Assembly: GCA_030524715.1 (NCBI GenBank)
Contig: JAUNGB010000060.1
Span: 1-32,944, forward strand
Origin: Eubacteriales bacterium
GTDB taxonomy: Bacteria; Bacillota; Clostridia; Lachnospirales; Lachnospiraceae
Length of the DNA: 32,944 nt
Direction of reading: 5' to 3'
The translations under genes and the position numbers were made by a program. Under the pieces are notes generated by a model. It saw only the letters and a program-made list of their open reading frames with translations, made no database searches and was not told the DNA's origin. Within the stretch, counting starts at the first letter, position 1; every line of letters starts with the position of its first letter. This document shows positions 6,952 through 32,578 of the stretch, piece by piece.

Positions 6952-7130
6952 TTCAAGACTTGCGAGCGAGTCTTGGTGCGGGATTCGGGTCAGCTACGCT
7001 GACATAATTCCAAACCGAATCCCTGCACATCCTCACGGAACGTATATCAGATGTGGGATTAAATCCCGCCACTGATACAAATTTGTTAATCACCGCCTAT
7101 AGCGGCGGGAGTCATTCCACATCTGATATA
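6952..7130 (+). repeat. Dispersed structured repeat, copy C (full-length)
   Basis: About 180 bases with two folding halves. The left half has GTGCGGGATTCGG pairing with CCGAATCCCTGCAC around an inner GTCAGC-TAC-GCTGAC hairpin. The right half is bounded by a perfect 14-base inverted repeat, TATATCAGATGTGG (7043-7056) with CCACATCTGATATA (7117-7130), enclosing smaller hairpins such as CCGCC-TATAG-CGGCGG and ACAAATTTGT. It lies between the divergent ileS and dacA promoters. No coding potential is seen. Confidence 0.85.
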
Positions 7131-13424: not shown

Positions 13425-13433
13425 TGGTATAAT
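13425..13433 (+). promoter_or_regulatory. Extended -10 promoter of the ATPase/HEPN operon
   Basis: TGGTATAAT holds a perfect TATAAT (13428-13433) with the TGn extension, about 49 bases before the ATG. No good -35 hexamer lies 16-18 bases upstream. An AGGAG site at 13470-13474 precedes the ATG by 7 bases. Confidence 0.65.
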
Positions 13434-13481: not shown

Positions 13482-16400
13482 ATGCATGATGTAAATTCTA
13501 TTACAGATTTACGAGAACAGCTCCATTCACTGAGCGGAATGTATAGCGATCTGAATCAGCTTTTGGAACAATTAAAAGCAGTATTGGACGATCAAAAATT
13601 TATACCTGAGCTTCTCAATAAATCTCTTCATGAAAAAATGGATCTTATTATTTCTTCACAAAGAGCATTTATCGTAAGATATCACATTCTTCAAATAGGC
13701 CGCTTGCCAAACGATATCCCTTCCATAGATCAAAAAATCGAAGAACAGTACAGGTTTCTTACGGAAAAGAAAAAATTTAACGATATCATCAGTTTTATAA
13801 TGGGGCTCCATTCAGACCAGGCTGACATTGAAAATGATCTGTCGCATGAAAAAGAATTCCTGAAAAGTTACGATACGTCTTCAAAGTCAGTTGAGGAATG
13901 TGAGGAAGCCTTAGAAAAGTATTTTCTTTTGAAAAATGCGTTTGAAGAAAATGACCCCCGCCAGAAATTTATGCTGATCATGGAAAAGCTTGGCAGCCTG
14001 TTTAGTATACCTATTACTTACGGACTTAATACCAATGCGATTTATTATTCTGCGGACAATGGGAAAGACTCCTCCCGGCCGGCAGTAAACTCATCTGAAG
14101 AGGAAGCTATGGAGAAAGAATGCGTTTCTCCGGCTGAGAAATCCGAAATTTCTTTACAGGATCCTGTCTCAGAAAAGAGCGTAACGGAAGACTGGAGCGA
14201 TCTGGGAATTTCCGATAAAGCTTCTGTCGTTTACAGTGTGGATAATAATGCTCTGCATGTACAGGTTGCCCGCCGCCAGAAGAAATTCAATACGGGCAGC
14301 TTCAGAAACGAGCTTTATTCCCAGTCATACGGTATGGAAAAAATGCATCTCTTAAAAAAAGCCTATGAACTGTGGGGAATCACGGCTGAGACAGTTGCCT
14401 GTATGGCACACTATGATGATGTTGAACCGCTCCGGATCGCGGCTGATAAATTAGTCCAATCCGGATATTTTAAGAAGTATATATTAGAGGAAAGCCAGCA
14501 TACTCACTATGAACCGCTCTATGTATTAACCCCTAACGGCGCGAAAGCGTTTACCAACAGGGAGGCTTGCGCCGTACTTAACCGGGAGCCTGTAAAAAAT
14601 GACTCACGTGCCAATGAGCTCCGGGATACTGCCGCTTCTGTACTGGTTAGGATTTTAGCGGGCAGATCTCATAATTTAATGCGCTCTATCTGCAATAACG
14701 CAGCCTGTAAAAACAGAATATTACATTTGAGTGAAAACGGAGCAATCAACATTTACCCCGTTGTTGGAGGCCGCAAATACGCATTTATCACCATTATCAG
14801 CAACGAACTCCGTTCATTTACAGATCTTTATCATACTATTCTTGATAATCTGGATGATATGGAAATTATTATTGCCATGGGCATGGACAAAGCTCATGCA
14901 AGAGCGCTTGGCTTATGGATCAAAAATATTGTCAACAGCAAAAACTATACGAAACAGATACTTTATTACAATATCGAAGAACAAAAATACCATTCTTCAG
15001 ACGACGACACAGAAATCGATCCCGCCATGGATTACGCGGCTTCTGTAATTTCTCCTGCTGCTGAAGCAGATGAAGTTACCACGACTATCTCTGATGCTAA
15101 CACTTATTCAAATTCCGACACGATCTTTGATATTGCCTCAGATGCTGATGTCAGCTCAGACTCCGGCGCGGATACCGGACCTAAGATTGCCTCTGAGTTA
15201 ATTATTAATGATGCTTTTACAAAAACAAATACGCCCTTAAAGCTCTTGCCCCCAAAGCCGGCGGCTTTTGCAGCAGCTTCTGATTTTGAAGCATATACCG
15301 CTAAATACCTGCAGATGCTTATTACGGATAACTTTTACTGTGCATGTGCGTACGTAAATGCATTATCTTTAAAATATACGGATTTTGGGTCTGTGTATCA
15401 GCAGTTGGCTTATGCCTTGAACGATCCTATGGCAAATTGCAATTATACATCAGACTGCTTATTTTCAATTTATTTTTCAAAAGATCAGCAGATTTCTGAG
15501 TATTATGTAATATCCGCCGTAATCAGAAACTATTTTCTGGATCATTGCAGCTACGACTATTCTGTGCAGATGCTCCAGGGCGCGATTTCAGGTTTTGATC
15601 TGTTATCAAAAAATACTGCTTTAAACCGGGCGATCTATTCCCTTCAGAAGTTTAAAGCCACCTATCACCGGGGCATGGATTATTATGCCGATTACAGGCA
15701 GAAAAAGCGTGAAACCTTTGAAATGACCATCAGGAAGATCTGCCATGAAGCAAAAGTCTATTATGATAATTACTGCTGCGGCAAAGAAACCGGGTTTCAC
15801 CGGCGTATGATCGAAACCAATAAGATCATCTATGCCGAAGGAACTGAAATTGCAGCATATCTGGAAGCGGTAAAGGATGACAATCGTGATTTCCTTGCGC
15901 TTATGACGGATTTTCTCTCTTCCACTTACATTAAAGACAGTATGGATATTATTTCGGCAAATATTGATTCGGAAAAAATTGAAAAAGTAATTGATACCGC
16001 CTGGGAAGAGGCAGGAAACCGAATGGATCGCAAAATTAAAACTTCAGATTTAATGGGCAGCTATCGTATGCATGTCTTTAAGCAAATCCGGAAGATGGTC
16101 GCCGTTCTCTGTGATTATGTTTCCCTGGTGGGAAATGCAGCGATCGATGATGATGATTCTGGTTTCATAGCATACAGGAGAGAAAAGGCAGGTCTTTCTG
16201 AAGATATTACAGAAGCCATTCATTATCTGGATCAGAACGTCCTGTCCACACTGGAAGAGCATTCCGGCCAAAGAGTCCTTCGCTATACTTTGACGGATTT
16301 GCTTTCACGTTTAGACGGTACATATAACGACAATGACGATCAGTATTTCTATATGGGATTTCTGCAAAACGATAAAGTTCTTTTGGATGAAGACTATTTG

Positions 16401-18860
16401 CCGGTTCTGGACGATGTTACAGAAATCAGCAGCCTTTCCATTCTTAACCGGATTGAAGAACATGCCAATGAAACTACTGCTTCATCAACTGAGTTTTCTA
16501 CCTCATTAGAAAAAAGATTAGTTGATATTTTAAACGGTGAAGACGATTATGGTTCGGCAAGACTGATCATCGATTACTTTGCCGATCATACAGAACAATT
16601 GGATAACAGAGAATTACTCAACGTCAGTATTGAAAAGGCTGTTGTTTATCCAAAGAAAGATATGGAAACCAAACGCAGGGAGTTTATTGAAGACCTTGAG
16701 CTTGCCCAAAGCTATGGCCAGATTGACAACACCACGGAGGACCGTAAGGAAACACTGATCCAGATGATGGATTCATGGTACGAATGGGCAATGGAAACAG
16801 AAAATTTCGGGTTCTTTTATAAGATCCTGGAGGCAATTCGTAATAAGATAAAAGAAGACGCCCAGGTTCGCTCTGTGGAGTTAAAACGCAATTTATCCAT
16901 TTATCAGCAGAAGCATACCGATCTGGCATCAGACGAACAACAGAAATCAATTATCAGAAAGATTGAATCCAGTATCGACACCCAAAACTATGCTGCTGCG
17001 GAGGATATGCTCAACAGATTAATCGCAGGGGATATCAACAGCGACATTAACTTTATTCAGGATGACTATCTTGCCCAATTTTTGGAGGAATATACTTCAA
17101 ATTCAATCCGGGCAGGTAAAGCTGGCGCAACATTACAGTCCGCTCTTACCAGAGGATATAATAAAGACAGCCGCGGCGCGGTACGCTTAATTGAAAGCTG
17201 GCCCAAGCATAACGGTACGTCTTCTTCCAGAATCAAGGATTTACTGACGTCCCTTGGTTTTTCCGTTGAAGACGTCACGTCACAGCCTGCCATTCAGGGA
17301 AAAGATCATTTTCTGGTAATGTTAAAGAAGCCTGTCAATGGGCGGAAAGCAAATTATAAGCACCCTATCGCTGTATTTGGTTCCGATGCTGAAGAAAAGG
17401 GCTTTCGAGTGGTCAGTATTTTTGGAAAAATGGATGCCGGAAGGTTGATCGATACCTTTAAAGAAATCGGAACTGCAAAAAACACGCTGATCCTATTAGA
17501 CTATTCTCTCACATTACCGGACAGACGTGAACTTGCGCGCAGAACAAAAACAGAATTTAACAGTAAAACATTTGCTGTTATTGACCGGGTTGTTCTTGTA
17601 TATCTTGCAACCCATTACTCCGAAACGGCGATCAATCGTATGCTTATGGCTGTTACAATGCCATTTGCCGCATGTCAGCCATATGTAGCGGATTCTTCCA
17701 AGATCATGCCTCCTGAAATCTTTATGGGCAGAAAAACCGAACTTGATAAAATCGAGTCTGCTTCCGGTGTTAATATTGTTTATGGAGGACGGCAGCTTGG
17801 TAAATCGGCTTTGCTTCGTATGGCTCAGAAAAATATCGATCACAATGAAAACGGCGACCGTGCTGTCCTGATCGATATTAAAGGTCTTGATTATAAGGGC
17901 GCGGCAAAAAAGATCTCGGCGGCTTTATACGATGAAAAGATATTAAAAACCGAACATATCACTGATAATTGGGAAGAATTGTCCCGCGATATCCAAAACA
18001 GATTGCGTGAGGAAGAAGATAAGATCCCATATCTTCTTTTGCTGCTGGATGAAGCGGATGTATTTATCGAAAGCTGTGAAAATGTAGATTATCATCCGTT
18101 TGACGTTTTAAAAGAGATCCAAAATGTGGGTTCCAAACGTTTTAAGTTTGTAATTGCCGGTTTGAGAAATATCGTTCGCTTCAAGAAAAATATCGCGCTC
18201 AGCAACAATCGCGTATTGACACAATTAAGCTCCTTAACCGTTATGCCCTTTAAATCAACAGAAGCAAGAGAGCTTTTGCAGGTTCCTCTTTCTTATTTAG
18301 GCTTCAGATTCCCTGAGGATAATAAGACTGATATGCTTATTTCCATGATTTTTGGCACAACAAACTATTTTCCCGGCCTTATCCAGTTATACTGTTCCAA
18401 ACTGATCGAAGCTGTAGAACGGGATTATGCCGGATACGATGAAAATGTAACTCCGCCTTATGTTGTAAAAGAAGCTCATATTAAGAAGGTATTGGCCGAT
18501 AAAACTCTGGAAGAACAGATCAGGGAAAAATATTTCATTACCCTTAAAGTAGATGAAGATGATTACTACTATCTGATCGCGTTAATTATTGCTTTTAATT
18601 ACCACAATAACAAGATGCAGAATGGCTGCAGCGCAGACGATATTATTGACATCGCTGCCAGTTACGGAATCAATAAAATTTCCTCTCTCTCGGCCGATAA
18701 GATTCTTGCATTGATGGAAGAAATGCGTGAATTAAATGTTCTTCAGCAGGTTGGCAACGGAAATTATCGTTTTGCAAGACACAGCTTCTGCCAGATGATG
18801 GGCAGTATGTCACAGATCGATGATGAAATCATGGAATATGCTATTACGCAGGAGGATTGA
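13482..18860 (+). CDS. Giant STAND/Orc-like P-loop ATPase, candidate defence sensor
   Basis: 1792 residues, not assigned to a named family. Visible layout: a helical, coiled-coil-like N-terminus (about 1-170); a winged-helix-like segment (about 285-360, KKAYELWGITAETVACMA, ending LYVLTPNGAKAF); an acidic Ser/Asp-rich linker (about 515-575); a long helical middle (about 590-1240); an unassigned alpha/beta domain (about 1250-1400); and a C-terminal ATPase. The P-loop is GGRQLGKSA with Lys1441, Walker B is LLLLLDEADVF with Asp1523-Glu1524, and a sensor-like VIAGLRNIVRF and NYFPGLIQL follow. The last 100 residues look like another winged helix (NYRFARHSFCQMM). Such layouts are typical of STAND-type signalling ATPases and of several phage-defence sensors. 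It ends one base before the next gene, so the two are co-translated. The plain alternative is a DNA-maintenance ATPase. Confidence 0.75.
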   Translation: MHDVNSITDLREQLHSLSGMYSDLNQLLEQLKAVLDDQKFIPELLNKSLHEKMDLIISSQRAFIVRYHILQIGRLPNDIPSIDQKIEEQYRFLTEKKKFNDIISFIMGLHSDQADIENDLSHEKEFLKSYDTSSKSVEECEEALEKYFLLKNAFEENDPRQKFMLIMEKLGSLFSIPITYGLNTNAIYYSADNGKDSSRPAVNSSEEEAMEKECVSPAEKSEISLQDPVSEKSVTEDWSDLGISDKASVVYSVDNNALHVQVARRQKKFNTGSFRNELYSQSYGMEKMHLLKKAYELWGITAETVACMAHYDDVEPLRIAADKLVQSGYFKKYILEESQHTHYEPLYVLTPNGAKAFTNREACAVLNREPVKNDSRANELRDTAASVLVRILAGRSHNLMRSICNNAACKNRILHLSENGAINIYPVVGGRKYAFITIISNELRSFTDLYHTILDNLDDMEIIIAMGMDKAHARALGLWIKNIVNSKNYTKQILYYNIEEQKYHSSDDDTEIDPAMDYAASVISPAAEADEVTTTISDANTYSNSDTIFDIASDADVSSDSGADTGPKIASELIINDAFTKTNTPLKLLPPKPAAFAAASDFEAYTAKYLQMLITDNFYCACAYVNALSLKYTDFGSVYQQLAYALNDPMANCNYTSDCLFSIYFSKDQQISEYYVISAVIRNYFLDHCSYDYSVQMLQGAISGFDLLSKNTALNRAIYSLQKFKATYHRGMDYYADYRQKKRETFEMTIRKICHEAKVYYDNYCCGKETGFHRRMIETNKIIYAEGTEIAAYLEAVKDDNRDFLALMTDFLSSTYIKDSMDIISANIDSEKIEKVIDTAWEEAGNRMDRKIKTSDLMGSYRMHVFKQIRKMVAVLCDYVSLVGNAAIDDDDSGFIAYRREKAGLSEDITEAIHYLDQNVLSTLEEHSGQRVLRYTLTDLLSRLDGTYNDNDDQYFYMGFLQNDKVLLDEDYLPVLDDVTEISSLSILNRIEEHANETTASSTEFSTSLEKRLVDILNGEDDYGSARLIIDYFADHTEQLDNRELLNVSIEKAVVYPKKDMETKRREFIEDLELAQSYGQIDNTTEDRKETLIQMMDSWYEWAMETENFGFFYKILEAIRNKIKEDAQVRSVELKRNLSIYQQKHTDLASDEQQKSIIRKIESSIDTQNYAAAEDMLNRLIAGDINSDINFIQDDYLAQFLEEYTSNSIRAGKAGATLQSALTRGYNKDSRGAVRLIESWPKHNGTSSSRIKDLLTSLGFSVEDVTSQPAIQGKDHFLVMLKKPVNGRKANYKHPIAVFGSDAEEKGFRVVSIFGKMDAGRLIDTFKEIGTAKNTLILLDYSLTLPDRRELARRTKTEFNSKTFAVIDRVVLVYLATHYSETAINRMLMAVTMPFAACQPYVADSSKIMPPEIFMGRKTELDKIESASGVNIVYGGRQLGKSALLRMAQKNIDHNENGDRAVLIDIKGLDYKGAAKKISAALYDEKILKTEHITDNWEELSRDIQNRLREEEDKIPYLLLLLDEADVFIESCENVDYHPFDVLKEIQNVGSKRFKFVIAGLRNIVRFKKNIALSNNRVLTQLSSLTVMPFKSTEARELLQVPLSYLGFRFPEDNKTDMLISMIFGTTNYFPGLIQLYCSKLIEAVERDYAGYDENVTPPYVVKEAHIKKVLADKTLEEQIREKYFITLKVDEDDYYYLIALIIAFNYHNNKMQNGCSADDIIDIAASYGINKISSLSADKILALMEEMRELNVLQQVGNGNYRFARHSFCQMMGSMSQIDDEIMEYAITQED

Positions 18861-18861
18861 C

Positions 18862-19932
18862 ATGGATCAGATTTGGTGGAAACAGATTTCAAGAGCCAGT
18901 CATTTTATAAGAAATACAGCTAACGCAGCTCTTGACGGCAAAAACATCATATTAAGCTTTCCGGAATTTATTCCCTGGCAGAATACGATGTATGAAATAA
19001 TTGAGGGGATTCTTCACACGGAGAATCCCGAATACCGTCTTGTGTTCCATGAATGTCCTGCCGGAGATATCGGCGAGTTTCTATTAAAGGAATACTGCAA
19101 ACGGGAAAAAAGAGCAAGCTATAGATTTGGCATGTCATATGCGGCTTTTCTTGCAAAGAGTGAGGATATTGTTTTAAATACCCGGTATTTATGGATCAAA
19201 AATGTATCAGGAAAAAAACTGGAGGAATGGGCCAGGTTTATTCTGGATTATAACAAAAATCTTCCCAAACATAAGTCGCCGGCTATATTTATCCTGGAAA
19301 CCCATAGCGCAGGCATCCGGCCGCCCAAAATAAAAGGCATAAGATATATCAGCTTTGACGATAATGTGGATTCATACGATAAATTCACCTTCTGCGCTCT
19401 TGCCAGTACAGATACTGATGTAAAAGGATATCTCCGTCCCTACCTTGCCGATTTAGTATCTACTGTATGTAAAGACGATATTGAACTGTGCGCCGCCTGT
19501 ATTCAGCATTGGAGAGATTTTCTTGAAAATCCCCTTCAAACCCTGAAACGGATCGCAAAACAGGAGGTTCACAGCGACGGTTCCTCTTTTTGTCTCGACC
19601 TGAAGCAGGAAACGGTAGAGAAATCCATTTGGGAAGGACAAATAAAATTACTGTTTCCGATCGTGGAAAAATATCGTTCCAAATTTATAAAGCGGCACTA
19701 CGCGGAAATAAACAAAGCCCTGCCTGTCCAGACATCTTACGGAGATTTCATAAAAAATCCGTTGGATGTGGAACTGGGCTGTATTATTCAGATGGTCGGT
19801 AATAAATATATCACTCTAAACGACTCAGAATATACTCAACTTGACAATTTCCGCCATGCAAGAAACGATCTTGCGCATAGTACGCCAATCAGTTTCACAA
19901 GAGTAGATTGGATTCTTTCACAAAAAATATAA
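18862..19932 (+). CDS. Uncharacterised protein with C-terminal HEPN-type RNDLAH motif
   Basis: 356 residues, no family recognised. The ATG was chosen because AGGAGG at 18850-18855 (inside the end of the ATPase gene) precedes it by 6 bases. Residues 1-220 alternate hydrophobic strands and helices (KNIILSFPEF, YRLVFHECPAG, TRYLWIKNVSG, SPAIFILETHSA), suggesting an ATPase-like Rossmannoid fold without a P-loop. The last 100 residues are helical and carry RHARNDLAHSTP; Arg334-His339 fits the RX4H signature (R-polar-x3-H) of HEPN ribonucleases. No signal peptide or membrane segment is seen. A HEPN nuclease triggered by the partner ATPase is my inference; a non-catalytic HEPN-like helical domain is the main alternative. 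The coding region ends just before repeat copy D. Confidence 0.65.
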   Translation: MDQIWWKQISRASHFIRNTANAALDGKNIILSFPEFIPWQNTMYEIIEGILHTENPEYRLVFHECPAGDIGEFLLKEYCKREKRASYRFGMSYAAFLAKSEDIVLNTRYLWIKNVSGKKLEEWARFILDYNKNLPKHKSPAIFILETHSAGIRPPKIKGIRYISFDDNVDSYDKFTFCALASTDTDVKGYLRPYLADLVSTVCKDDIELCAACIQHWRDFLENPLQTLKRIAKQEVHSDGSSFCLDLKQETVEKSIWEGQIKLLFPIVEKYRSKFIKRHYAEINKALPVQTSYGDFIKNPLDVELGCIIQMVGNKYITLNDSEYTQLDNFRHARNDLAHSTPISFTRVDWILSQKI

Positions 19933-19936
19933 ATAA

Positions 19937-20130
19937 TTATCAGATGTGGGATGACTTCCGCCTCTATAGGCGGTGAGTAACAAATTTATATCAGTGGCGG
20001 GATTCAATACCCCATCTGATATACGCTCCGCGAGGATGTGCAGGGATTCGGTTTGGAATTATGTCAGCGTAGCTGACCCGAATCCCGCACCAAGACTCGG
20101 GTCAACTATGATGACATAATTCAAAATCCG
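19937..20130 (-). repeat. Dispersed structured repeat, copy D (full, inverted, with extra arm)
   Basis: The reverse complement of copy C at 6952-7130. Outer arms ATCAGATG and CATCTGAT bound the CCGCC/GGCGG hairpin, then comes the GGGATTCGG...CCGAATCCC half with the GTCAGC-GTA-GCTGAC-type inner hairpin. A further degenerate piece (20098-20130, GGGTCAACTATGATGACATAA) repeats the inner hairpin in the opposite orientation. It lies between the convergent HEPN and flavodoxin genes, where its stems might also help end transcription. Confidence 0.85.
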
Positions 20131-22341: not shown

Positions 22342-22743
22342 TTAGTTCATATACTGTCTGATTTTATCAATCAATGTAATATCTGCCGGCAGCCAGGCAA
22401 CACTCTCTAGCTGATCCTTGGTAAGCCATTTCGCCGTCTCAGCCTCTCTGAGTTCCAGTTGACCTGTGATAACTTCAGCCCAAAAACAATCCATAGAAAG
22501 ATGGAATGTCGGATAATCATATTCTATCGTATCAATTAATTCTCCAACCTTGATTTCCGTGCTAAGCTCTTCCATGATTTCTCTTTTCAGTGCCTGCTGT
22601 GGAGTTTCACCTAGCTCTACCTTTCCACCAGGAAACTCCCATCCGCCTTTCAGATCACCATAGCCCCTGGCGGTTGCAAAAATCCTATTCTTTCGTTCCA
22701 TATCGTTACAAATAATGGCTGCGACTACTTTAATTGTCTTCAT
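22342..22743 (-). CDS. Nudix hydrolase (MutT-type, (deoxy)nucleoside triphosphate pyrophosphohydrolase)
   Basis: 133 residues. The Nudix box is complete: Gly40, Glu46, then Arg54-Glu55 and Glu58-Glu59 (GGKVELGETPQ, KREIMEEL), fitting Gx5Ex7REUXEEXGU. WEFPGGKVE and the size match the small MutT-like pyrophosphohydrolases that clean up non-canonical dNTPs. The start ATG lies one base after the helicase stop, so it is the second gene of a coupled pair. Pairing of such Nudix proteins with PLD-helicases is something I recall from Firmicutes genomes, which would suggest a joint role in nucleic-acid surveillance; that link is inference. Confidence 0.9.
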   Translation of the reverse strand: MKTIKVVAAIICNDMERKNRIFATARGYGDLKGGWEFPGGKVELGETPQQALKREIMEELSTEIKVGELIDTIEYDYPTFHLSMDCFWAEVITGQLELREAETAKWLTKDQLESVAWLPADITLIDKIRQYMN

Positions 22744-22744
22744 A

Positions 22745-25504
22745 TTATTCCTTCATCAATCCAAAATCATATTGCAGATACTCTGGCAACTCATTCTCCA
22801 TATGAATATCAAACAGGTATGTTCCATTATCCCCGTCTGTTTTGCGAGGATTCGACATCTTTCCTTTTCCTACATAGGTAAAGGGAAGAACTAAACCATT
22901 CTCGGTGGTCATCTTGCGGATAAATACATGTGCAAATGTGCTCTTCATCAGTTTTTCAAGATGTGACTGCGGAAGATTTGTCATAGACTCCCACTGGAAC
23001 AAATCCGGTTGCAGGAATTTATCCTTATAATTCAGCTTATCTGCTTCCTCCAGATCCTTCTTCAATGATGCGAAAATCACTACATAGTCATCATAATAGT
23101 AGGTTCCTACCATAATATTTCCAGGGTTCTTTAGGAGCTTTAATTGCACCTGATCCATTCGGTAATTCAGCCAAAGCTTAAAGCCCGTCTCATTTCCATT
23201 GTCAATTACATAGCGTATCAAACCATACTCGATGAGGTCCTGCACATACTCCAGAAGCTGATCATCCATAGGTACAGACAGTCTCAGAATATCCTTGTCT
23301 TTTTCAACAAACTGCAGGTATGTCAGCGCATGCTCCATCTCTGCCAGAACGAATCCTTGAACTGTTTCTGTCAGGTACATTACTATCTCCCGATGTGTTT
23401 TCGGTCCGTCGATCAGTAACTTTACGATCTGATACTCATGTACACGCACAAGTGGAAGCAACCCAGACAGATAATTGATAAAATCTATCTGTTTCTCCGT
23501 GAAGACCGGCAGGTTCTCTTCTCCGATACCTCTGAGGAAATTATAATAGCTGCAGTTCTTCTTTCCCCTCGTCTTAATGCTCATAAAACGAATCATATCC
23601 GGAGCACAGTCATTGTTGATATAATCTACATGACGCGGATAAAATTCTGATCCGATGTATTTTTTGAAATTGAAATAATCCTGCTTCAGATACTTCAGAG
23701 CGTTGAAATTCTCTTTATCAATGTATTCCAGGATCTCTTCCTTGCTCAAATCATCAATATGAATCTCTACACCGTAATCAGCCAAACCAAGAGCTATAAA
23801 ATCATCCTTCACTAATGATGCAAGCAATCTTTTTTCCATAACAAAATTCTCAGATAAAGCCCCCAACGCAAAAGCGATCTGCACACTTCGCTTATAGCCA
23901 TTGCCGATAAAATCCAGCACGGTAACATACTCCTTATTTGTATATTTACGCAATCCACGGCCAAGCTGCTGAATAAAGATCGTCATAGACTCGGTTGGTC
24001 TAAGGAACAGCACCATATTCACGCCGGGAATGTCGACACCTTCATTCAGGATATCCACTGTAAACAGGATCTCAAGATTACGAGCATCATTTTGCAAATC
24101 ATTATAAGCTCTGACACGCTCACCAATATCATTACGGCCAGTCAGATAAGCGGTATGATACCGCTCTCCCAATGCTTCACACATCATTCTGGCATGGGTA
24201 ACATTTCTACAGAACGCAAGTGCCTTCAGCTTTCCTTTTGGAAGATGCTTCTCAATCTGCTCGGCAATAAAATCGCAGTGATCTTCCTTTGCCATCTGCG
24301 CAATCATTCTGCGTTCTTCATTTCCGGTCAGCCCATAATCCACCAGCTTGTCTCGAATACCAAAATATTTAAACGGAACAACTAGATCATTGGCGATTGC
24401 ATCACGCAATCTTAGTTCATAAGGCACATTATAGTCGAATAATTCGAAAACATCCTGGTTGTCCAAACGTTCCGGTGTAGCAGTCAATCCAAGTAAGAAT
24501 TCCGGTTCAAAATAACCGATAATCTTTTTATAAGTCTCTGCTGTGGCATGATGACACTCATCAATAATAATGTAATCAAATTCATTCTTTGAGAATAGTT
24601 CCAGTGTTTTGCACATGGTAATGTTAGTGGCAAATACAAAATCTGCATCCGATTCTTTACTGGTGCCGCTATAGATGCCATAGGATACATTTTTACCGAA
24701 CACCTCTTGGAAGGTCTCCAGGGATTTTCTCAAAATAGATCCTTCATGTACAATGTAAAGCAATCTCTTCGGGTTGAAATTCAATGCATCAAAAGCTGCC
24801 AAATATGTTTTTCCACTACCTGCCGATGCAATCGTGAGAGCACGATTAACACCTATGGCACGGTAACGATTCAACTCCTTCAAGGCCTTCTTCTGCATAT
24901 AATTCGGCTTGATCTTTGACGCTGACAGATCATAATCCATATCCCAGCGCTCAATAGCATAACTCAGTCTCTGAGCATATTTAACGATCAGTTCTGCATT
25001 CAATAATTCCGTTGCGGTCCATTTTTCTTCAAATTCTTTCAACGCATCATCATATGCACCGTTTACAAAATAGTCCTTTACCGATACATCCCATTCAATA
25101 TTTTTAAGAAGCGCATATCGTGTGATATTTGAAGAGCCAATCACTAACTCTCTGTGATCATCGAATTCAAAAAGATATCCCTTGGAATGGTAGCCAAGAG
25201 TGGAATAACCGGTATCATGAAAGCTCTCATAATCCAAATGGCATTGAAAATTAGGACATCTTCCCATGAGCGCATAGAAACTCTTCAAGGATTCAATATC
25301 TGTGAAATTCTGGTAAGTTGAGGTGATGATACGTCCCTTACAACCTCTTTCCACGGCTGCTTCAATATCCTTGAACAACAAAACAAGGCCAGCTTTCTTA
25401 ATAAAGCTGACAGAGAAATCAAAAGACTTACAATGCCTTAGATTATCTTTGATTTTGTCCAGAAAAGTAATATCTGTATAATTTGTTAAAAACTCATGTT
25501 CCAA
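22745..25504 (-). CDS. PLD-nuclease/superfamily 2 helicase fusion with DUF3427-like C-terminus
   Basis: 919 residues. Residues 1-190 are a phospholipase-D-like nuclease: HSK at His106-Lys108 with GSSNITRYAL at 123-132 replacing the classical Asp-containing tail. The SF2 helicase core has its P-loop ASAGSGKT with Lys232, motif II DECH at 315-318, LLGLTATPERL, and motif VI QQLGRGLRKYTNKE. The last 400 residues fit DUF3427 (YYDDYVVIFASLKK, LPFTYVGKGKM). The start is TTG, fixed by GGAGG 9 bases upstream; no ATG serves. Proteins of this build are often found in defence islands as stand-alone restriction-like enzymes, but I cannot show that for this one. Decayed HNH-type and methyltransferase genes lie just upstream on the same strand. 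Confidence 0.9.
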   Translation of the reverse strand: MEHEFLTNYTDITFLDKIKDNLRHCKSFDFSVSFIKKAGLVLLFKDIEAAVERGCKGRIITSTYQNFTDIESLKSFYALMGRCPNFQCHLDYESFHDTGYSTLGYHSKGYLFEFDDHRELVIGSSNITRYALLKNIEWDVSVKDYFVNGAYDDALKEFEEKWTATELLNAELIVKYAQRLSYAIERWDMDYDLSASKIKPNYMQKKALKELNRYRAIGVNRALTIASAGSGKTYLAAFDALNFNPKRLLYIVHEGSILRKSLETFQEVFGKNVSYGIYSGTSKESDADFVFATNITMCKTLELFSKNEFDYIIIDECHHATAETYKKIIGYFEPEFLLGLTATPERLDNQDVFELFDYNVPYELRLRDAIANDLVVPFKYFGIRDKLVDYGLTGNEERRMIAQMAKEDHCDFIAEQIEKHLPKGKLKALAFCRNVTHARMMCEALGERYHTAYLTGRNDIGERVRAYNDLQNDARNLEILFTVDILNEGVDIPGVNMVLFLRPTESMTIFIQQLGRGLRKYTNKEYVTVLDFIGNGYKRSVQIAFALGALSENFVMEKRLLASLVKDDFIALGLADYGVEIHIDDLSKEEILEYIDKENFNALKYLKQDYFNFKKYIGSEFYPRHVDYINNDCAPDMIRFMSIKTRGKKNCSYYNFLRGIGEENLPVFTEKQIDFINYLSGLLPLVRVHEYQIVKLLIDGPKTHREIVMYLTETVQGFVLAEMEHALTYLQFVEKDKDILRLSVPMDDQLLEYVQDLIEYGLIRYVIDNGNETGFKLWLNYRMDQVQLKLLKNPGNIMVGTYYYDDYVVIFASLKKDLEEADKLNYKDKFLQPDLFQWESMTNLPQSHLEKLMKSTFAHVFIRKMTTENGLVLPFTYVGKGKMSNPRKTDGDNGTYLFDIHMENELPEYLQYDFGLMKE

Positions 25505-25842: not shown

Positions 25843-26224
25843 CTATTTGCGGAGTATTAAATTCAGCCACCTCTCATCACCCTTCCTGGTCTGACATCAA
25901 ATGCAAAATAGAGGCGCATGCCCAAATGCCATCATATGTATCAATCTCATCCAGTTCCCCAAACATCATTTCTTTCACTGCAATACCGGTAAAGCTACTT
26001 GCTGATCTACAGATTTCTGCAGAACCATCCGTTGCAGTAACCTGATACCCTTTATCCAGAAAATATCTGGTATCGCGGCCAGAACCGCATCCGAAATCAA
26101 GAATAGATGCGTTTTCATCCAACAATCGCAGAAATCTATCCTGAGTCTGATGCATATCAACATTCTTTGTATTCTCTATGAAACTTTCTGCATTAAGATT
26201 GTAATAATCAATTGTATGATTCAT
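25843..26224 (-). pseudogene. Internally deleted class I SAM methyltransferase gene
   Basis: The frame from ATG 26224 encodes a normal methyltransferase N-terminus: motif I LDFGCGSGRD (residues 42-51), VTATDGS for motif II, and YDGIWACASILHL for motif IV. It then runs into MSDQEG and stop at 25877. In the other frames the next DNA reads DVRPGR and then DERWLNLILRK followed by TAG (25843-25845), which fits the C-terminus of the same enzyme family. So about 80 residues seem to be missing at the ILHL/DVRPGR junction, and a one-base loss lies in the GGGT after AGACCAGGAA. The 5' end overlaps the upstream gene by 17 bases. The product would lack the second half of the Rossmann fold. Confidence 0.6.
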
Positions 26225-27032: not shown

Positions 27033-27989
27033 TCATTCCTCTGTTTCCAGTTCTAATCTCTGTAATATATCTTTGATTATCCCTGCATCTTGAATAAGGT
27101 TGATACCAAAGCATTTCTTTCCTGCGTCTTTTAAGGACGCCCCTACATGATAGGCTGTTTCTCGGTCAAGAATTAAGAAACGGTCATGGAACGCTTTTGT
27201 ATATTTCACTTCTAATGTTGGGTACTGTGCATTAAAATTCTCTGTATCTGTTTTTGTGAGCCTTGTCCGCTTCTGGGTATAGATTGTCACGGACACGTTC
27301 TCATTCTTTTTGGAAAGCAAATTCAATGTTCCCACATCCACATATCCATCTATCAGCGTGATTTCTTTTTCCGCCTTTTGGATAAGGCTGACAATCAAGC
27401 TGAACGCATCATAAATCTGCCCGTCAAAGAATACCTTTTGACTGGCTTCTTCATGTTCGGATATGTACTCAAATATCTGCTCGAATTTCTCATCCGTCTG
27501 TTTCTGATATTCCAACTGTTTCAATTCTACATTGCTGATACGCTCAAAGAGCAGGGCATTATTGGAGATAAAACGACGCATCTCCACAAAAGTATCCATG
27601 ATACGAATACTTGTCTGAATGGCAACTTCGCTTCGCAATACTGTTGAAAGCATGGCTATTCCTTGCTCTGTAAAAGCATATGGTAAAGTTCTTCGTCCGC
27701 CATAGTTATTCAAACTTGAAATCGCAAATTGCGATTTCAAGTTTGCGTATTCCTCTTTAGTAAGCTGAAACCTAAATCTTTCTGGGAAACGAGATATGTT
27801 ACGTTTAACAGCCTCATTCAGTCGCCCTGTTTCTACTTGGTATAGCATAGCCAAATCGCTATCTATCATTACTTGCTGATTGCGAATTACATATATCAGA
27901 TTTTTTATATCAGCTTGTATCAGCTCTACTGTTTCCACCTGTGTTTGATTATTTTCTTTTGTTAAAGCAGTCTGGTCTGATTTAGCCAT
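27033..27989 (-). CDS. ORF6N-domain protein with PLD-like C-terminal domain
   Basis: 318 residues. Residues about 24-110 form the ORF6N (KilA-N/BRO-like) DNA-binding domain typical of phages and mobile elements (IDSDLAMLYQVETGRLNEAV, then SRFPERFRFQLTKEEY, GGRRTLPYAFTEQGIAMLS). A coiled coil follows (about 130-175). The C-terminus (about 190-300) looks phospholipase-D-like (ITLIDGYVD, FHDRFLILDRE, HVGASLKDAGKK); His-Asp-Arg replaces the HxK motif, so catalysis is doubtful. The ATG has AAAGGAT upstream. A 35-base perfect palindrome lies inside the DNA-binding-domain coding sequence, and related palindromes flank the gene. Autoregulation through these sites is plausible but unproven. Confidence 0.88.
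   Translation of the reverse strand: MAKSDQTALTKENNQTQVETVELIQADIKNLIYVIRNQQVMIDSDLAMLYQVETGRLNEAVKRNISRFPERFRFQLTKEEYANLKSQFAISSLNNYGGRRTLPYAFTEQGIAMLSTVLRSEVAIQTSIRIMDTFVEMRRFISNNALLFERISNVELKQLEYQKQTDEKFEQIFEYISEHEEASQKVFFDGQIYDAFSLIVSLIQKAEKEITLIDGYVDVGTLNLLSKKNENVSVTIYTQKRTRLTKTDTENFNAQYPTLEVKYTKAFHDRFLILDRETAYHVGASLKDAGKKCFGINLIQDAGIIKDILQRLELETEE
27711..27745. repeat. Palindrome P2, inside the ORF6N coding sequence
   Basis: A perfect 17+1+17 inverted repeat (35 bases) centred on 27728, running CAAACTTGAAATCGCAA then A then the exact complement. It encodes about residues 82-93 (NLKSQFAISSLN). It matches P4 upstream of the gene in 31 of 33 overlapping positions by my reading. Confidence 0.95.
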
Positions 27990-29095: not shown

Positions 29096-29125
29096 AGACG
29101 TTCAGAAATGAGCGTCTATTTTTTT
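29096..29125 (+). terminator. Leader terminator or attenuator before the adhesin gene
   Basis: AGACGTTCA and TGAGCGTCT form a nine-base stem (one G-U) with a GAAA tetraloop, followed by ATTTTTTT. It ends ten bases before the AAAGGAG site of the adhesin gene, so it lies in that gene's leader. It may end transcription from the left or act as an attenuator. Confidence 0.7.
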
Positions 29126-29152
29126 ACCAAAATGAAAGGAGAATCAAAAGAT

Positions 29153-32100
29153 ATGAAAAAGTTTATAAGACGATTGCTTACAGGTGTACTCACCCTTGCG
29201 ACCGTATTTACCGCATTACCTGTCACACAGGTTCATGCAGCGGATTCCGTCTATACCCATTCTGACGGAAAAACGGGTACGGTCATTAAAGAAACAGACA
29301 GCGGAGAACAAGAGTCTGTTTTTGAGGAAGGCTGGATGAAAGCAGACGGGGAAACTGCCTATTGTATTCAATTAGGTGTGGCGTTCCAGTCTGGCTATAA
29401 GACACGCAAGGACGCAACCGAGCGATTGAGCGAATCACAGATTACCGATATTGCTTTGAACCTTGAATACGTCAAAAATTATACAAAAGACAGGTTTTCT
29501 AGCGAACAGGCGTATTTATTACAGCAATGTACGGTATGGCGTAGATTGAGTGTTCATTTAGGTTGGGGATTTGGAAATACACACGTTGCCTATGATGAAA
29601 TCTCTAAAAGTGTACAGGATAAAATCTATGAGAACGCAAAGGCTTTCGCTAAGGAAAATAAAGACCGTTACGATTGTTATGGTTATATCTATACTGGCGA
29701 GGGGCAGGACTTAGGACAGTTCTATGCAAAGTTAGCTGTCGGGAATGGAAAGATTCAAAAATCTTCCAGTAATGTCACAGTCACGAACGGGAACGACTGC
29801 TATTCTCTCTCTGGTGCGACTTATGGTGTTTATTCTGATAAAGGCTGCACGAAGTCTGTTGCCACACTTACGACAAATGCCAATGGAAATACTGACACTG
29901 TGGAATTAAGAGCCGCAACATACTATGTAAAGGAAACGAAAGCTCCAAAGGGATTCCAGTTAGATAAGAACATCTATACCCTTACGGTCAAGGCTGGCGA
30001 AACTTCCACATTGAAAGTGAACGATACTCCAAAAGTCACAGACACTTTGGTTGAGCTTTTCAAGATTGATATGGAAACAGGAAAAGCCCCTGCACAGGGT
30101 AACGCTTCTTTAGAGGGTGCAGAGTTTGTTTGGAAGTATTATGGCGGTTATTACACAAAAGATAATCTTCCATCAGAACCAACACGCACATGGACGACAA
30201 AGACAATCGCTGAAAAAGACAGCAATAACGAAGTCCATTACATCACAAGATTAGCGGATTCTTACAAGGTGTCTGGTGACAGCTTCTATACACAGAATGG
30301 TACTATCTGCCTGCCACTTGGTACTATCACTGTGGAAGAAAAGGCAGCTCCAAACGGTTACTTATTGGAGGGTGCTTATATGCAGGCTGCCGGAAGTTCG
30401 GAACAGATAAAAGGTGTCTATGTGGCACAGATTACAGAAGATGGTGAGCTTGCAGCGTTAAGCGGCAGCAACCAGTATTCTGTATCAGACAAGGTTATCC
30501 GTGGCGGTGTCAAAATCCAAAAACGTGACTTTGAAACCAAAGATACAAAAGCACAAGGCGGTGCGACTTTGAAAGATACTGCCTTTGAAATCATTTCCTT
30601 AAATGATAACGCTGTCTTGGTAGATGGTAAGCTATACAGCAAGAATGAAGTTGTCAAGACAATCCATACAGGTGTTGACGGTATCGCTGCAACTGCCGCC
30701 GATACATTACCATATGGAAAATACCGTATTGAGGAAAGCAATGCCCCAGAGGGATATTTGACGGACGGTGCAAAACCGATTGAATTTGATATTGTGAATG
30801 ATGGTGAAATCGTAGATTTAACTGACGAAACACACTCCGTCTATAATCAGATTAAACGTGGTGATTTGGAGGGCGTGAAAATCAGTGATGGTACACACAA
30901 GCGACTTGCGAATGTTCCCTTTAGGATCACAAGCAAGACGACTGGTGAAAGCCATATCATTGTGACAGATAAAAACGGTCAGTTCTCCACTTCCTCTGAC
31001 TGGGTATCTCATAAGCAGAATACCAATGCCGGAAAGACCAGTGAAGATGGTATCTGGTTCGGTACTTCCACACCAGACGACAGCAAAGGTGCTTTACTTT
31101 ACGATACTTACACAATCGAAGAATTACGCTGTGATTCCAACAAGGGAATGACACTGATTCCTGCTTTTGATGTAGTGGTTTCAAGAAATAAAGTTGTTGT
31201 TGATTTAGGTACGCTCACAGATGATTATGAGCCGGAAATCACTATCCATACGACTGCAACAGATAAGGTGACAGGTGAGAAGTCAATCGTTGCTGGTAAG
31301 AGCGTGACAATCGTTGATACCGTCACTTTAGATGGATTGAAAAAAGGTACGAAATATCAGTTGAAAGGCTGGCAGATGGTGAAATCTGAAAATGCACAGC
31401 TTCTTGTAGATGGTAAACCTGTGGAGAGTGATTATACATTCACTGCTAAAAAATCAGAAATGGAAGTGGAGGTTTCCTATACGTTCAACGCTTCCGCTCT
31501 TGGTGGTAAAGACCTTGTGACCTTTGAAGAATTATATGATTTATCCAATCCAGATGAGCCTGTTAAAGTAACTGAACACAAAGACATTGAGGACGAGGGG
31601 CAGACCGTGACGATTGAAGAACGTGTGATTGAAATTCATACCAACGCTGCCGATAAAGCCACAGGTGAAAAGATGATTGTTGCTGGCAAAGAGGTAACTG
31701 TCATTGATACGGTCACTTTAGATGGCTTGGAAAAAGGTACAACCTATCAGCTCAAAGGCTGGCAGATGGTGAAGTCTGAAAACGCACAGCTTCTTGTAGA
31801 TGGTAAACCTGTGGAAAGTGATTGCACCTTTACTGCAAAAGATTCCAGTATGGAAGCCCAGATTGCTTTTACATTCAATGCCAGCGAGCTTGCAGGCAAA
31901 GACCTTGTGACATTCGAGGAATTATACGATTTATCTAATCCAGACGAGCCTACAAAGGTAGCGGAACATAAAAACATTGAGGACGAGGGGCAGACTGTGA
32001 CGATTACAGAACGTATTATCACTATGCACACAACCGCCACAGATAAGGCAACAGGCAAAAAGACATTCGAAGCTGGTAAGGACGTAACTATCGTTGATAC

Positions 32101-32578
32101 CGTTACTTTAGATGGTCTTGAAAAAGGCGTGAAATATACCCTTAAAGGTTGGGAAATGGTGAAGTCTGAAAATGCCGAGCTTATCGTAGGTGGTAAACGT
32201 GTAGAAAACGACCTTACTTTCACTGCTACTGACACGAAAATGGAAGTTCAGATTGAATTTACATTCAATGCCAGTGAGCTTGCAGGTAAAGAGCTTGTGA
32301 CCTTTGAAGAATTGTATGATACGTCCAATCCAGACGAGCCTATCAAAATGGCTGAACATAAGGACATCAAGGACGAGGGGCAGACTGTAACAATCAAAGA
32401 AAAACCAGAATCCCCTACCACACCAGATGAACCTAGCACACCAACTAAGGCAAGTACATCACCAAAGACAGGTGACAATACGCCATTTGTTGCATTGTTC
32501 GCCATGATGGGAATTTCCGCTGCTGGTCTTATCTTTGCCGGATATAAGAGATTCCGCAGAGTAAAGAAATCTGACTGA
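29153..32578 (+). CDS. VaFE-repeat, sortase-anchored surface adhesin with thioester domain
   Basis: 1141 residues. A signal peptide (about 1-29, ending QVHA) is followed by a domain with the hallmarks of a Cys-Gln thioester adhesin: YCIQ at Cys71 and QCTVW at Gln125. Then come SpaA/Cna-B-like beta domains (ETKAPKGFQLD, EEKAAPNGYLLEG, EESNAPEGYL), and three 130-residue VaFE repeats, each with LVTFEELYD, probably stabilised by isopeptide bonds. The C-terminus has a Thr/Pro spacer, the sorting motif SPKTG (LPXTG variant), a hydrophobic helix and a basic tail. The ATG was chosen from AAAGGAG 11 bases upstream; an earlier in-frame ATG lies in the terminator stem. It sits at the end of a conjugative element and is probably cargo that helps host-cell or partner-cell attachment. 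Confidence 0.93.
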   Translation: MKKFIRRLLTGVLTLATVFTALPVTQVHAADSVYTHSDGKTGTVIKETDSGEQESVFEEGWMKADGETAYCIQLGVAFQSGYKTRKDATERLSESQITDIALNLEYVKNYTKDRFSSEQAYLLQQCTVWRRLSVHLGWGFGNTHVAYDEISKSVQDKIYENAKAFAKENKDRYDCYGYIYTGEGQDLGQFYAKLAVGNGKIQKSSSNVTVTNGNDCYSLSGATYGVYSDKGCTKSVATLTTNANGNTDTVELRAATYYVKETKAPKGFQLDKNIYTLTVKAGETSTLKVNDTPKVTDTLVELFKIDMETGKAPAQGNASLEGAEFVWKYYGGYYTKDNLPSEPTRTWTTKTIAEKDSNNEVHYITRLADSYKVSGDSFYTQNGTICLPLGTITVEEKAAPNGYLLEGAYMQAAGSSEQIKGVYVAQITEDGELAALSGSNQYSVSDKVIRGGVKIQKRDFETKDTKAQGGATLKDTAFEIISLNDNAVLVDGKLYSKNEVVKTIHTGVDGIAATAADTLPYGKYRIEESNAPEGYLTDGAKPIEFDIVNDGEIVDLTDETHSVYNQIKRGDLEGVKISDGTHKRLANVPFRITSKTTGESHIIVTDKNGQFSTSSDWVSHKQNTNAGKTSEDGIWFGTSTPDDSKGALLYDTYTIEELRCDSNKGMTLIPAFDVVVSRNKVVVDLGTLTDDYEPEITIHTTATDKVTGEKSIVAGKSVTIVDTVTLDGLKKGTKYQLKGWQMVKSENAQLLVDGKPVESDYTFTAKKSEMEVEVSYTFNASALGGKDLVTFEELYDLSNPDEPVKVTEHKDIEDEGQTVTIEERVIEIHTNAADKATGEKMIVAGKEVTVIDTVTLDGLEKGTTYQLKGWQMVKSENAQLLVDGKPVESDCTFTAKDSSMEAQIAFTFNASELAGKDLVTFEELYDLSNPDEPTKVAEHKNIEDEGQTVTITERIITMHTTATDKATGKKTFEAGKDVTIVDTVTLDGLEKGVKYTLKGWEMVKSENAELIVGGKRVENDLTFTATDTKMEVQIEFTFNASELAGKELVTFEELYDTSNPDEPIKMAEHKDIKDEGQTVTIKEKPESPTTPDEPSTPTKASTSPKTGDNTPFVALFAMMGISAAGLIFAGYKRFRRVKKSD
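31238..32407 (+). repeat. Three tandem 390-base units encoding the VaFE repeats
   Basis: Units begin at 31238, 31628 and 32018, exactly 390 bases (130 codons) apart with no length variation, and share long near-identical stretches (for example around AAAGGCTGGCAGATGGTGAA in units 1 and 2). Equal length and high identity point to recent duplication and allow copy-number change by recombination. Confidence 0.9.

What the first reader, a model, noticed from the sequence alone, without database searches (positions are those of the whole stretch)
13482..19932. Two-gene ATPase/HEPN module that may be an undescribed defence system
Seen: a 1792-residue protein with winged-helix-like segments, a long helical middle and a C-terminal P-loop ATPase (Lys1441, Asp1523-Glu1524), coupled with a one-base gap to a 356-residue protein ending in RNDLAH. 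Known: HEPN ribonucleases use an RX4-6H motif, and STAND/Orc-like ATPases act as sensors in many toxin-effector immune systems. Inferred: the giant protein senses phage or foreign nucleic acid and unleashes a HEPN RNase. The pair has its own promoter, is flanked by a structured repeat, and neighbours accessory genes.
Basis: partly seen in the sequence, partly recalled or inferred. Interest (0 to 1): 0.85.

Follow-up and report, generated by a model that had tools for sequence, protein, structure and literature searches.

The report
ATPase-gated HEPN ribonuclease gene pair
Two adjacent genes encode a giant ATP-driven, sensor-like protein and a small partner with a probable RNA-cutting domain; the pair recurs as a unit in many distantly related bacteria and most likely is an immune module of a kind predicted in print but not, as far as we could find, tested.

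Summary
A 1792-residue protein (13482-18860) and a 356-residue protein (18862-19932) lie one base apart. The giant ends in an ORC/Cdc6-like AAA+ ATPase and a winged-helix-like fold. The small protein is modelled with high confidence (pLDDT 96.6): an AAA+-like domain without Walker motifs, then a helical domain with an invariant HEPN signature (R334, N335, H339 in 67 of 67 aligned relatives). The pair is a real unit: a partner lies beside the giant in 94 of 103 loci; 3 of the 9 exceptions are contig ends. N-terminal halves fall into dissimilar classes, one with TPRs. Presence is patchy; close relatives lack the pair beside the same genes. Some relatives adjoin CRISPR-Cas, DISARM-like or E1-E2/JAB genes, but in the clostridial set the neighbours seen are largely housekeeping. 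The likeliest reading is an ATP-gated RNase immune module. It is not wholly undescribed: Kaur et al. 2021 (PMC8195603) predicted a mobile two-gene 'nSTAND2' operon whose inactive STAND domain is fused to HEPN or GT4. Ours fits that layout; sequence membership was not testable. Defence is unproven. The flanking 'structured repeat' is a genome-wide repeat, unrelated to the pair.

The parts
13425..13433 (+). extended -10-like promoter element TGGTATAAT, 48 bases before the giant's ATG (putative)
   Evidence: Read directly from the sequence; the consensus scan gives no support beyond chance.
13482..18860 (+). giant ATPase gene, 1792 aa
   Evidence: 279 relatives among 297 pattern matches in the species genomes.
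13482..15317 (+). N-terminal part (residues 1-612), variable between relatives; probably coiled coil, then a winged-helix-like stretch near residues 300-360
   Evidence: Of 64 giants over 1700 aa, 34 share this class, 26 another, 4 neither; profile matches a designed helical bundle (E 0.001) and, weakly, a cullin (E 0.34).
15261..17246 (+). long all-helical middle (about residues 594-1255)
   Evidence: AlphaFold2 model of residues 594-1792, mean pLDDT 87.9.
17265..17612 (+). alpha/beta domain (residues 1262-1377), identity unresolved
   Evidence: Secondary structure of the model.
17730..18401 (+). [quoted passage not shown]
   Evidence: Foldseek best match Aeropyrum ORC2 1w5s, E 4.5e-6, target TM 0.51; weak Pfam ATPase_2, E 0.049.
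17781..17807 (+). Walker A, Y1434-S1442, with Lys1441
   Evidence: K1441 in 62 of 62 aligned giants.
18048..18053 (+). Walker B, Asp1523-Glu1524
   Evidence: Both in 62 of 62.
18564..18773 (+). winged-helix-like domain (residues 1695-1764) after the AAA+ domain
   Evidence: Helix-helix-helix-strand-strand order in the model; ORC proteins, which end in a winged helix (recalled), are the best matches.
18862..19932 (+). partner gene, 356 aa
   Evidence: relatives beside the giant in 94 of 103 loci.
18862..19581 (+). AAA+-like domain without Walker motifs (about residues 1-240); P38-W39 stand where a P-loop would be
   Evidence: Model pLDDT 96.6; Foldseek Apaf-1 1z6t E 1.4e-5, ORC2, RuvB, RFC, NLRs; column contents.
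19606..19920 (+). HEPN-like helical domain (residues 249-353)
   Evidence: Helices in the model; profile link to DUF4145; weak Pfam HEPN hits.
19861..19878 (+). RNDLAH, the HEPN Rx4H signature (Arg334, His339)
   Evidence: R334, N335, H339 in 67 of 67.

Best explanation
The two genes form one mobile immune module. Shown by computation: a giant protein with a variable N-terminal half, a long helical scaffold, an ORC/Cdc6-like AAA+ ATPase with intact Walker A and B and a C-terminal winged-helix-like fold, co-encoded with a small protein made of a Walker-less AAA+-like domain and a domain with an invariant HEPN signature. Inferred: the Walker-less domain docks on the giant's ATPase as a non-hydrolysing subunit of a mixed AAA+ assembly and keeps the HEPN domains inactive or apart. 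When the variable half or the helical scaffold meets a sign of infection (phage protein or nucleic acid), ATP binding or hydrolysis rearranges the assembly, pairs the HEPN domains and switches on RNA cleavage. That stops phage production, probably at the cost of the cell's own translation.
For: Pairing: a partner on the same strand next to the giant in 94 of 103 loci; in 32 of the 76 loci with a listed downstream ORF the genes overlap by 4 bases. Reverse test: the 8 other genomes found with the partner profile and the 2 all have a giant beside it. Catalytic residues: R334/N335/H339 67 of 67, K1441/D1523/E1524 62 of 62; 91 of 94 and 102 of 103 in the wider set. Fold. HEPN: HEPN_Swt1, DUF4145, HEPN_RiboL-PSP and HepT-like models touch 4, 3, 1 and 1 of 67 members weakly, and again two plasmid partners; in-register profile link to DUF4145 at P 0.0018, against P 0.71 for ferritin and P 0.022 between two accepted HEPN families. 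Sensor-like variability: two main N-terminal classes without detectable similarity, one with TPRs. Accessory status, own genome included: 3 of 61 relatives, 3 of 392 of the order, 9 of 398 of the phylum; relatives G007, G009, G020 have degP and ferritin together without the pair; the tree mixes families and classes. Defence company in some relatives: CRISPR array and Csn2 by L026, Cas10d after L017, Cas56g before L105, DrmE_C and DrmA after the giant of L120, E1-E2/JAB after L119.
Against: No phage experiment on any member was found. The neighbours seen in the clostridial set are largely housekeeping genes, and the enrichment test is crude. No sequence signal links the partner's AAA+-like domain to the giant's ATPase (P 0.1), and no arginine reaches 60 of 67 in its residues 1-240, so the mixed ring rests on fold and on the 2021 prediction. 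Foldseek TM-scores are low (0.26-0.37 over the query). No complex was modelled. Pfam HEPN hits stay under the curated cut-offs and unrelated models score as well. L080 has 5.6 kb downstream and no partner; five plasmid giants have other partners or none found; the partner of L117 lacks RN-x3-H. The window's partner itself has no match in the plasmid collection and the giants none in phages.
Confidence: 0.6

Rival explanations
1. A host-serving RNA quality-control or stress-response machine: the giant is an ORC-like remodeller that directs a HEPN RNase to cellular RNA, with no role against phage.
For: Clostridial neighbours are largely housekeeping genes in ever different settings; no hit in the phage collection and one in viral contigs.
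Against: Patchy presence (3 of 392 in the order; 9 of 398 in the phylum), tree mixing classes, variable N-terminal halves, distant giants on plasmids and some beside defence genes.
Confidence: 0.17
2. A toxin-antitoxin or addiction module: the partner is an RNase toxin and the giant its ATP-dependent antitoxin, kept for stabilising mobile DNA.
For: Two-gene layout; HEPN toxins occur in such pairs (recalled); distant giants on plasmids.
Against: An antitoxin of 1700-2400 residues with an intact ATPase and exchanged N-terminal halves would be unlike known ones (recalled); in L009 the partner frame and its motif stay open although the giant lost its ATPase core.
Confidence: 0.13
3. The HEPN-like domain is not an RNase but a dimerisation or nucleotide-binding part, and the giant's own alpha/beta domain is the effector.
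For: The HEPN assignment rests on motif, helical fold and weak profile hits; the alpha/beta domain at 1262-1377 is unassigned.
Against: R334, N335 and H339 are among the nine invariant columns of 67 aligned partners, as expected of a catalytic motif.
Confidence: 0.1

Closest known systems
nSTAND2 two-gene counter-invader operon predicted by Kaur et al. 2021 (PMC8195603; section 15 read in full)
   Same: Mobile two-gene operon; one intact and one eroded STAND/AAA+ NTPase; the eroded one fused to a HEPN effector; mixed multimer proposed.
   Different: No GT4 partner among the 8 plasmid partners scanned and none looked for beyond them; the paper's alignments could not be read, so identity of the families is untested; the section does not mention a giant of this size, exchanged N-terminal classes or a winged helix.
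BREX BrxC ATPase with inactive-STAND BrxB/BrxF, and DUF499 'BR' systems with HEPN (PMC12839542, passages)
   Same: ORC/Cdc6-type ATPase with an inactive STAND partner; HEPN recruited as effector in DUF499 ATPases.
   Different: No third gene is common to our loci; BrxC and DUF499 carry the ATPase at the N-terminus; no Pfam DUF499 or PADLOC match of our two proteins.
STAND/Avs-type immune NTPases (Apaf-1, plant NLRs, Avs5)
   Same: Fold similarity of the partner's AAA+-like domain (Apaf-1 E 1.4e-5, NRC2, a plant resistosome, Avs5) and ATP-gated effector logic.
   Different: Here the effector sits on a separate protein with a dead AAA+ domain, and the variable part is N-terminal to the ATPase.
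DISARM-like loci of Burkholderia and Cupriavidus plasmids (L118, L120)
   Same: A homologous giant ATPase is encoded directly before a DrmE_C protein, in L120 followed by a DrmA-type frame.
   Different: There no HEPN partner was found; the PADLOC scan of six window proteins named Drm models only as weak hits of the helicase (DrmC).

Membership tests
nSTAND2 two-gene operon (Kaur 2021) | two-gene operon with one intact and one eroded AAA+/STAND domain | tested here: met
   the eroded domain is recognised by fold only.
nSTAND2 two-gene operon (Kaur 2021) | eroded NTPase fused to a HEPN or GT4 effector | tested here: met
   HEPN-type C-terminus.
nSTAND2 two-gene operon (Kaur 2021) | conserved arginine finger in both proteins | tested here: inconclusive
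   No arginine reaches 60 of 67 in residues 1-240 of the partner; no finger was assigned in the giant.
nSTAND2 two-gene operon (Kaur 2021) | sequence membership (match to the authors' alignment) | not testable with these tools
HEPN superfamily | Rx4-6H motif in an all-helical domain | tested here: met
   R334-N335-x3-H339 in 67 of 67; helices within 249-353.
HEPN superfamily | significant profile match to a HEPN family | tested here: inconclusive
   Best Pfam E-values 0.002-0.01, under the cut-offs, few members; hhalign P 0.0018 but probability 15% to DUF4145, and no useful match to RiboL-PSP (P 0.021).
HEPN superfamily | RNase activity with paired domains | not testable with these tools
   Needs an assay or a structure of the dimer.
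ORC/Cdc6-STAND AAA+ ATPases | AAA+ fold with Walker A and B, followed by a winged helix | tested here: met
BREX | PglZ and DNA methyltransferase as conserved neighbours | tested here: not met
   Apart from the pair no gene cluster occurs in more than 8 of the loci. A short methyltransferase-like frame at window 25877-26224 was not tested further.
DUF499 BR (Hma) systems | DUF499 ATPase, often with N-terminal HEPN | tested here: not met
   No DUF499 match of the giant; HEPN is on another protein, at its C-terminus.
anti-phage defence system | protection against phage | not testable with these tools
   Needs an experiment.

The most novel reading that the evidence does not exclude
The ORC-type giant is a general chassis of bacterial immunity, found here in six phyla, whose N-terminal sensor and whose downstream partner are both exchanged: HEPN, HEPN plus a P-loop kinase-like domain, a PLD-helicase, or DISARM parts. 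The Walker-less AAA+ domain of the HEPN partner is the docking adaptor, so that an origin-recognition-like assembly gates an RNase.
Probability: 0.4. Interest if true: 0.75.

Novelty: new member of a known kind. Interest (0 to 1): 0.55.

Why it matters
A predicted class of ATP-gated RNase immunity gets a defined family with about a hundred compared loci, invariant residues to mutate, named isolates that carry it (Eubacterium ramulus ATCC 29099, Butyrivibrio proteoclasticus P6B7, Clostridium asparagiforme DSM 15981), and a testable idea: a dead AAA+ domain used as a docking adaptor that couples an ORC-like ATPase to a HEPN effector. Neither protein reaches a curated cut-off in Pfam or NCBIfam or any PADLOC model, so annotation pipelines based on them will miss it.

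Tried and rejected
Single-protein searches against Pfam, NCBIfam, PADLOC and the PDB gave nothing usable; profile searches of the PDB with the partner and with the giant's C-terminal 1200 residues gave chance-level matches. The idea that the flanking structured repeat belongs to the module was dropped. The idea that the partner's AAA+-like domain is a recognisable sequence copy of the giant's ATPase, or is fused into the long giants of L112, L118 and L120, found no support in profile comparison (P 0.1 and 0.35). A conserved third gene was sought and not found: apart from the pair, the largest cluster is ABC-transporter ATPases in 8 loci, then a 4-locus and several 3-locus clusters. Defence enrichment in the clostridial set was tried with 128 neighbour proteins of 61 loci against 93 proteins of 16 stretches of three genomes. 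The 128 come from 216 candidates of 70 loci (up to two frames of about 150 to 1300 residues on each side), sampled at random to 150 and then cut to the residue limit; six near-duplicate or viral loci were left out; some frames are probably not genes. At E 1e-15, 40 PADLOC families match neighbours and 5 match controls. Families are counted, not proteins; many are Csn2 or Cas10 models of one locus each; only 25 of the 40 are listed; the mad3 model hits more controls (6 of 93) than neighbours (2 of 128); and the control genomes are not those of the loci. I call it a hint only. Pfam gave 123 families for the same neighbours, of which the 25 listed are largely metabolic or regulatory. The first hhalign run had strand errors in its control sets and is void; the corrected run is.
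Full report
What is there. The window (genome G000, contig C202) holds a 1792-aa frame at 13482-18860 and a 356-aa frame at 18862-19932 on the plus strand with one base between them. A longer start for the second gene (18820) exists, but the conserved region begins at the shorter one (W5 and W6 in 66 and 64 of 67). Neither protein reaches a curated cut-off in Pfam or NCBIfam, or matches any PADLOC model at E 0.1.

Relatives. All counts include the window's own genome. With the single proteins, 3 of 61 related genomes carry both genes, the same three each time; with a 3-row profile of the partner, 3 of 392 genomes of the order; with a 67-row profile, 9 of 398 genomes of the phylum. A scan of the species genomes with the giant's C-terminal part gave 297 pattern matches of which 279 encode relatives; the best 80 were kept. 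They come from Lachnospiraceae, Oscillospiraceae, Selenomonadaceae, Erysipelotrichaceae, one Spirochaetales bin and others. One relative came from viral contigs; phage records gave none, and the window's partner none in plasmids. Distant giants are on plasmids: 27 and 24 records with two queries, in Streptomyces, Brasilonema, Azospirillum, Bradyrhizobium, Agrobacterium, Burkholderia, Cupriavidus, Salinibacter and others.

Strict pairing. 103 loci were examined: 81, the window, L008, L009, L012, L013, eight fetched after (L104-L111) and nine plasmid loci (L112-L120). A profile of the partner finds a same-strand gene next to the giant in 94. The nine without: three end at a contig end (L033, L042, L087), L080 has 5.6 kb and no partner, and five are plasmid loci of other phyla (L112, L113, L116, L118, L120). 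Ten of the 103 (L012, L013, L104-L111) were found through the partner, L008 and L009 through both genes, the others through the giant, so the pairing is seen from both sides. RN-x3-H stands in 91 of the 94 partners; the exceptions are L085 (cut by its contig end), L111 (decayed) and L117, which has RRGMAH. In 32 of the 76 loci with a downstream ORF listed the genes overlap by four bases (one entry there, L083, shows a wrong ORF; one search found the right one).

The partner protein. AlphaFold2 with 67 sequences gives mean pLDDT 96.6. Its first 240 or so residues resemble AAA+ modules: Apaf-1 (E 1.4e-5), archaeal ORC2, RuvB, clamp loaders, plant NLRs and Avs5; viral clamp loaders come up in the viral library. 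TM-scores are low, 0.26-0.37 over the query, partly because the chain carries a second domain. At the Walker A place stand P38 and W39 (64 and 63 of 67) and no acidic pair stands at the Walker B strand, so it should not hydrolyse ATP. The C-terminal 100 residues are helical. W123, D173, W257, P266, E269, R272, R334, N335 and H339 are invariant in 67 of 67. Scanned one by one, few members touch HEPN_Swt1 (4), DUF4145 (3), HEPN_RiboL-PSP (1) and HepT-like (1) weakly, among unrelated models that score as well; two plasmid partners touch HEPN_Swt1 again. Profile comparison aligns the motif in register with DUF4145 at P 0.0018 (probability 15%), against P 0.71 for ferritin; RiboL-PSP gives P 0.021, and DUF4145 against RiboL-PSP P 0.022. 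I judge it HEPN with about 85% confidence.

The giant. The model of residues 594-1792 (mean pLDDT 87.9) shows a long helical stretch, an alpha/beta domain at 1262-1377 that I could not name, an AAA+ domain and a C-terminal winged-helix-like fold; the best solved matches are archaeal ORC2 and eukaryotic ORC subunits. K1441, D1523 and E1524 are in 62 of 62 aligned giants. The N-terminal part varies: of 64 giants over 1700 residues 34 fall into the window's class, 26 into another, four into neither, by BLAST at E 1e-4 over 120 residues. The second class carries TPRs: TPR_12 in 11 of 23 members scanned and solved TPR proteins down to E 2.8e-22 for its profile. The window's class looks like a coiled coil followed by a winged-helix-like stretch, on weak evidence. 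A genome of the window's own genus (G035, L008) holds the second class.

Mobility. A quick tree of the giants' last 600 residues places Selenomonadaceae in two separate places and the Spirochaetales member inside a clostridial clade; this suggests transfer, but several branches are long and a quick tree is no proof. In G009 and G020 dacA, exonuclease, nucleoside hydrolase, degP and ferritin keep the window's order, with 2.4-3 kb more between nucleoside hydrolase and degP and with ferritin turned round; G007 keeps degP and ferritin. The pair is not in these stretches and was not found anywhere in these three genomes. It thus sits at the border between a conserved block and an accessory block. 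Two damaged copies were seen: L009 lacks the ATPase core while the partner frame is open; L111 has its giant in two frames and a stop in the partner match.

Company. Apart from the pair no gene cluster occurs in more than 8 of the clostridial loci, and the neighbours seen are largely metabolic or regulatory. Some relatives are beside defence genes: Eubacterium ramulus L026 has a CRISPR array ending about 100 bases before the giant and Csn2 beyond it; L017 is followed by Cas10d; L105 has Cas56g upstream; L109 has a DUF262-like frame (HEC-05, E 2.8e-35) and a helicase; L119, on a Ti plasmid, has an E1-E2/JAB frame and a gene annotated patatin-like downstream; L118 and L120 have DrmE_C partners and L120 also a DrmA frame. 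These were looked at because they caught the eye, so they are examples, not a rate. The one attempt at a rate is a hint only, for reasons given under what was tried. In the window a NUDIX gene and a PLD-helicase (mREase_IV model, E 2.9e-101) lie 2.4-5.6 kb beyond the pair.

What it most likely does. Shown: a conserved two-gene unit, an intact ATPase, and a dead AAA+-like domain fused to a domain with an invariant HEPN signature. Inferred: the dead domain docks on the ATPase; the variable half senses; ATP-driven rearrangement frees the RNase. I give 0.6 to this as a whole and about 0.7 to a conflict role of any sort.

What is known. Kaur et al. 2021 (PMC8195603; section 15 read in full; passages) describe a mobile two-gene operon, nSTAND2, with two STAND NTPases, one eroded and fused most often to GT4 or HEPN. 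The layout is ours. Whether the sequences are the same family could not be tested; the name nSTAND2 occurs in one relevant paper of the library. Parallels: BREX BrxB/BrxF inactive STAND and HEPN-DUF499 (PMC12839542, passages); the HEPN survey (PMC3710099, passages); ORC/Cdc6 systems around DndFGH (PMC10853773, passages); in PMC7159879 the word HEPN occurs once, in the references. Other papers were seen as search listings only. I found no experimental test of such a pair in searches of a library that lacks most subscription journals.

Verdict. A real, conserved, probably defensive two-gene module; most likely a member of a kind predicted in 2021, with added anatomy and reach.

Noticed in passing
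window 19938-20099 and 6967-7128: A dispersed repeat of about 162 bases with palindromic parts; 46 matches reported in the genome with 40 of 163 candidates scored. Not part of the pair.
   Followed up: partly
window 22342-25504: NUDIX gene (PDC-S07 model, E 8.7e-48) and PLD-SF2 helicase (mREase_IV model, E 2.9e-101) in tandem, a likely restriction-type defence module.
   Followed up: no
window 27033-27989: Gene matching the PADLOC candidate PDC-S05 (E 8.7e-133).
   Followed up: no
window 25877-26224: Short methyltransferase-like frame.
   Followed up: no
L009 4468-9915: Giant of genome G030 lacks the ATPase core while its frame and the HEPN partner stay open.
   Followed up: partly
L111 4149-7812: Decayed copy in genome G757: giant in two frames, a stop in the partner match.
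   Followed up: no
L117 9749-11422 and L119 10280-11869: Partners extended by an AAA_33 kinase-like domain behind the HEPN-type region; L117 lacks RN-x3-H but has RRGMAH.
   Followed up: partly
L118 9758-12526, L120 9827-15365: Giant homologue followed by a DrmE_C protein, in L120 also a DrmA frame: an unusual DISARM-like locus.
   Followed up: partly
L113 9810-13094: Giant homologue on a Brasilonema plasmid followed by a PLD-SNF2/ResIII helicase and no HEPN partner found.
   Followed up: partly
L026 3239-4245: CRISPR array with 36-base repeats ending about 100 bases before the giant in Eubacterium ramulus, with Csn2 at 2517-3185.
   Followed up: yes
L080 after 9701: A giant with 5.6 kb of sequence downstream and no HEPN partner.
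   Followed up: partly
A11 (second N-terminal class), first 70 columns and around column 340: By eye the consensus shows a small beta-rich motif at the start and a cold-shock-like GxI...GxI...YxFxxxDI motif before the TPRs, perhaps nucleic-acid binding; no Pfam hit among the 25 families listed supports it.
   Followed up: partly
window 29108-32578: Large VaFE-repeat surface protein.
   Followed up: no
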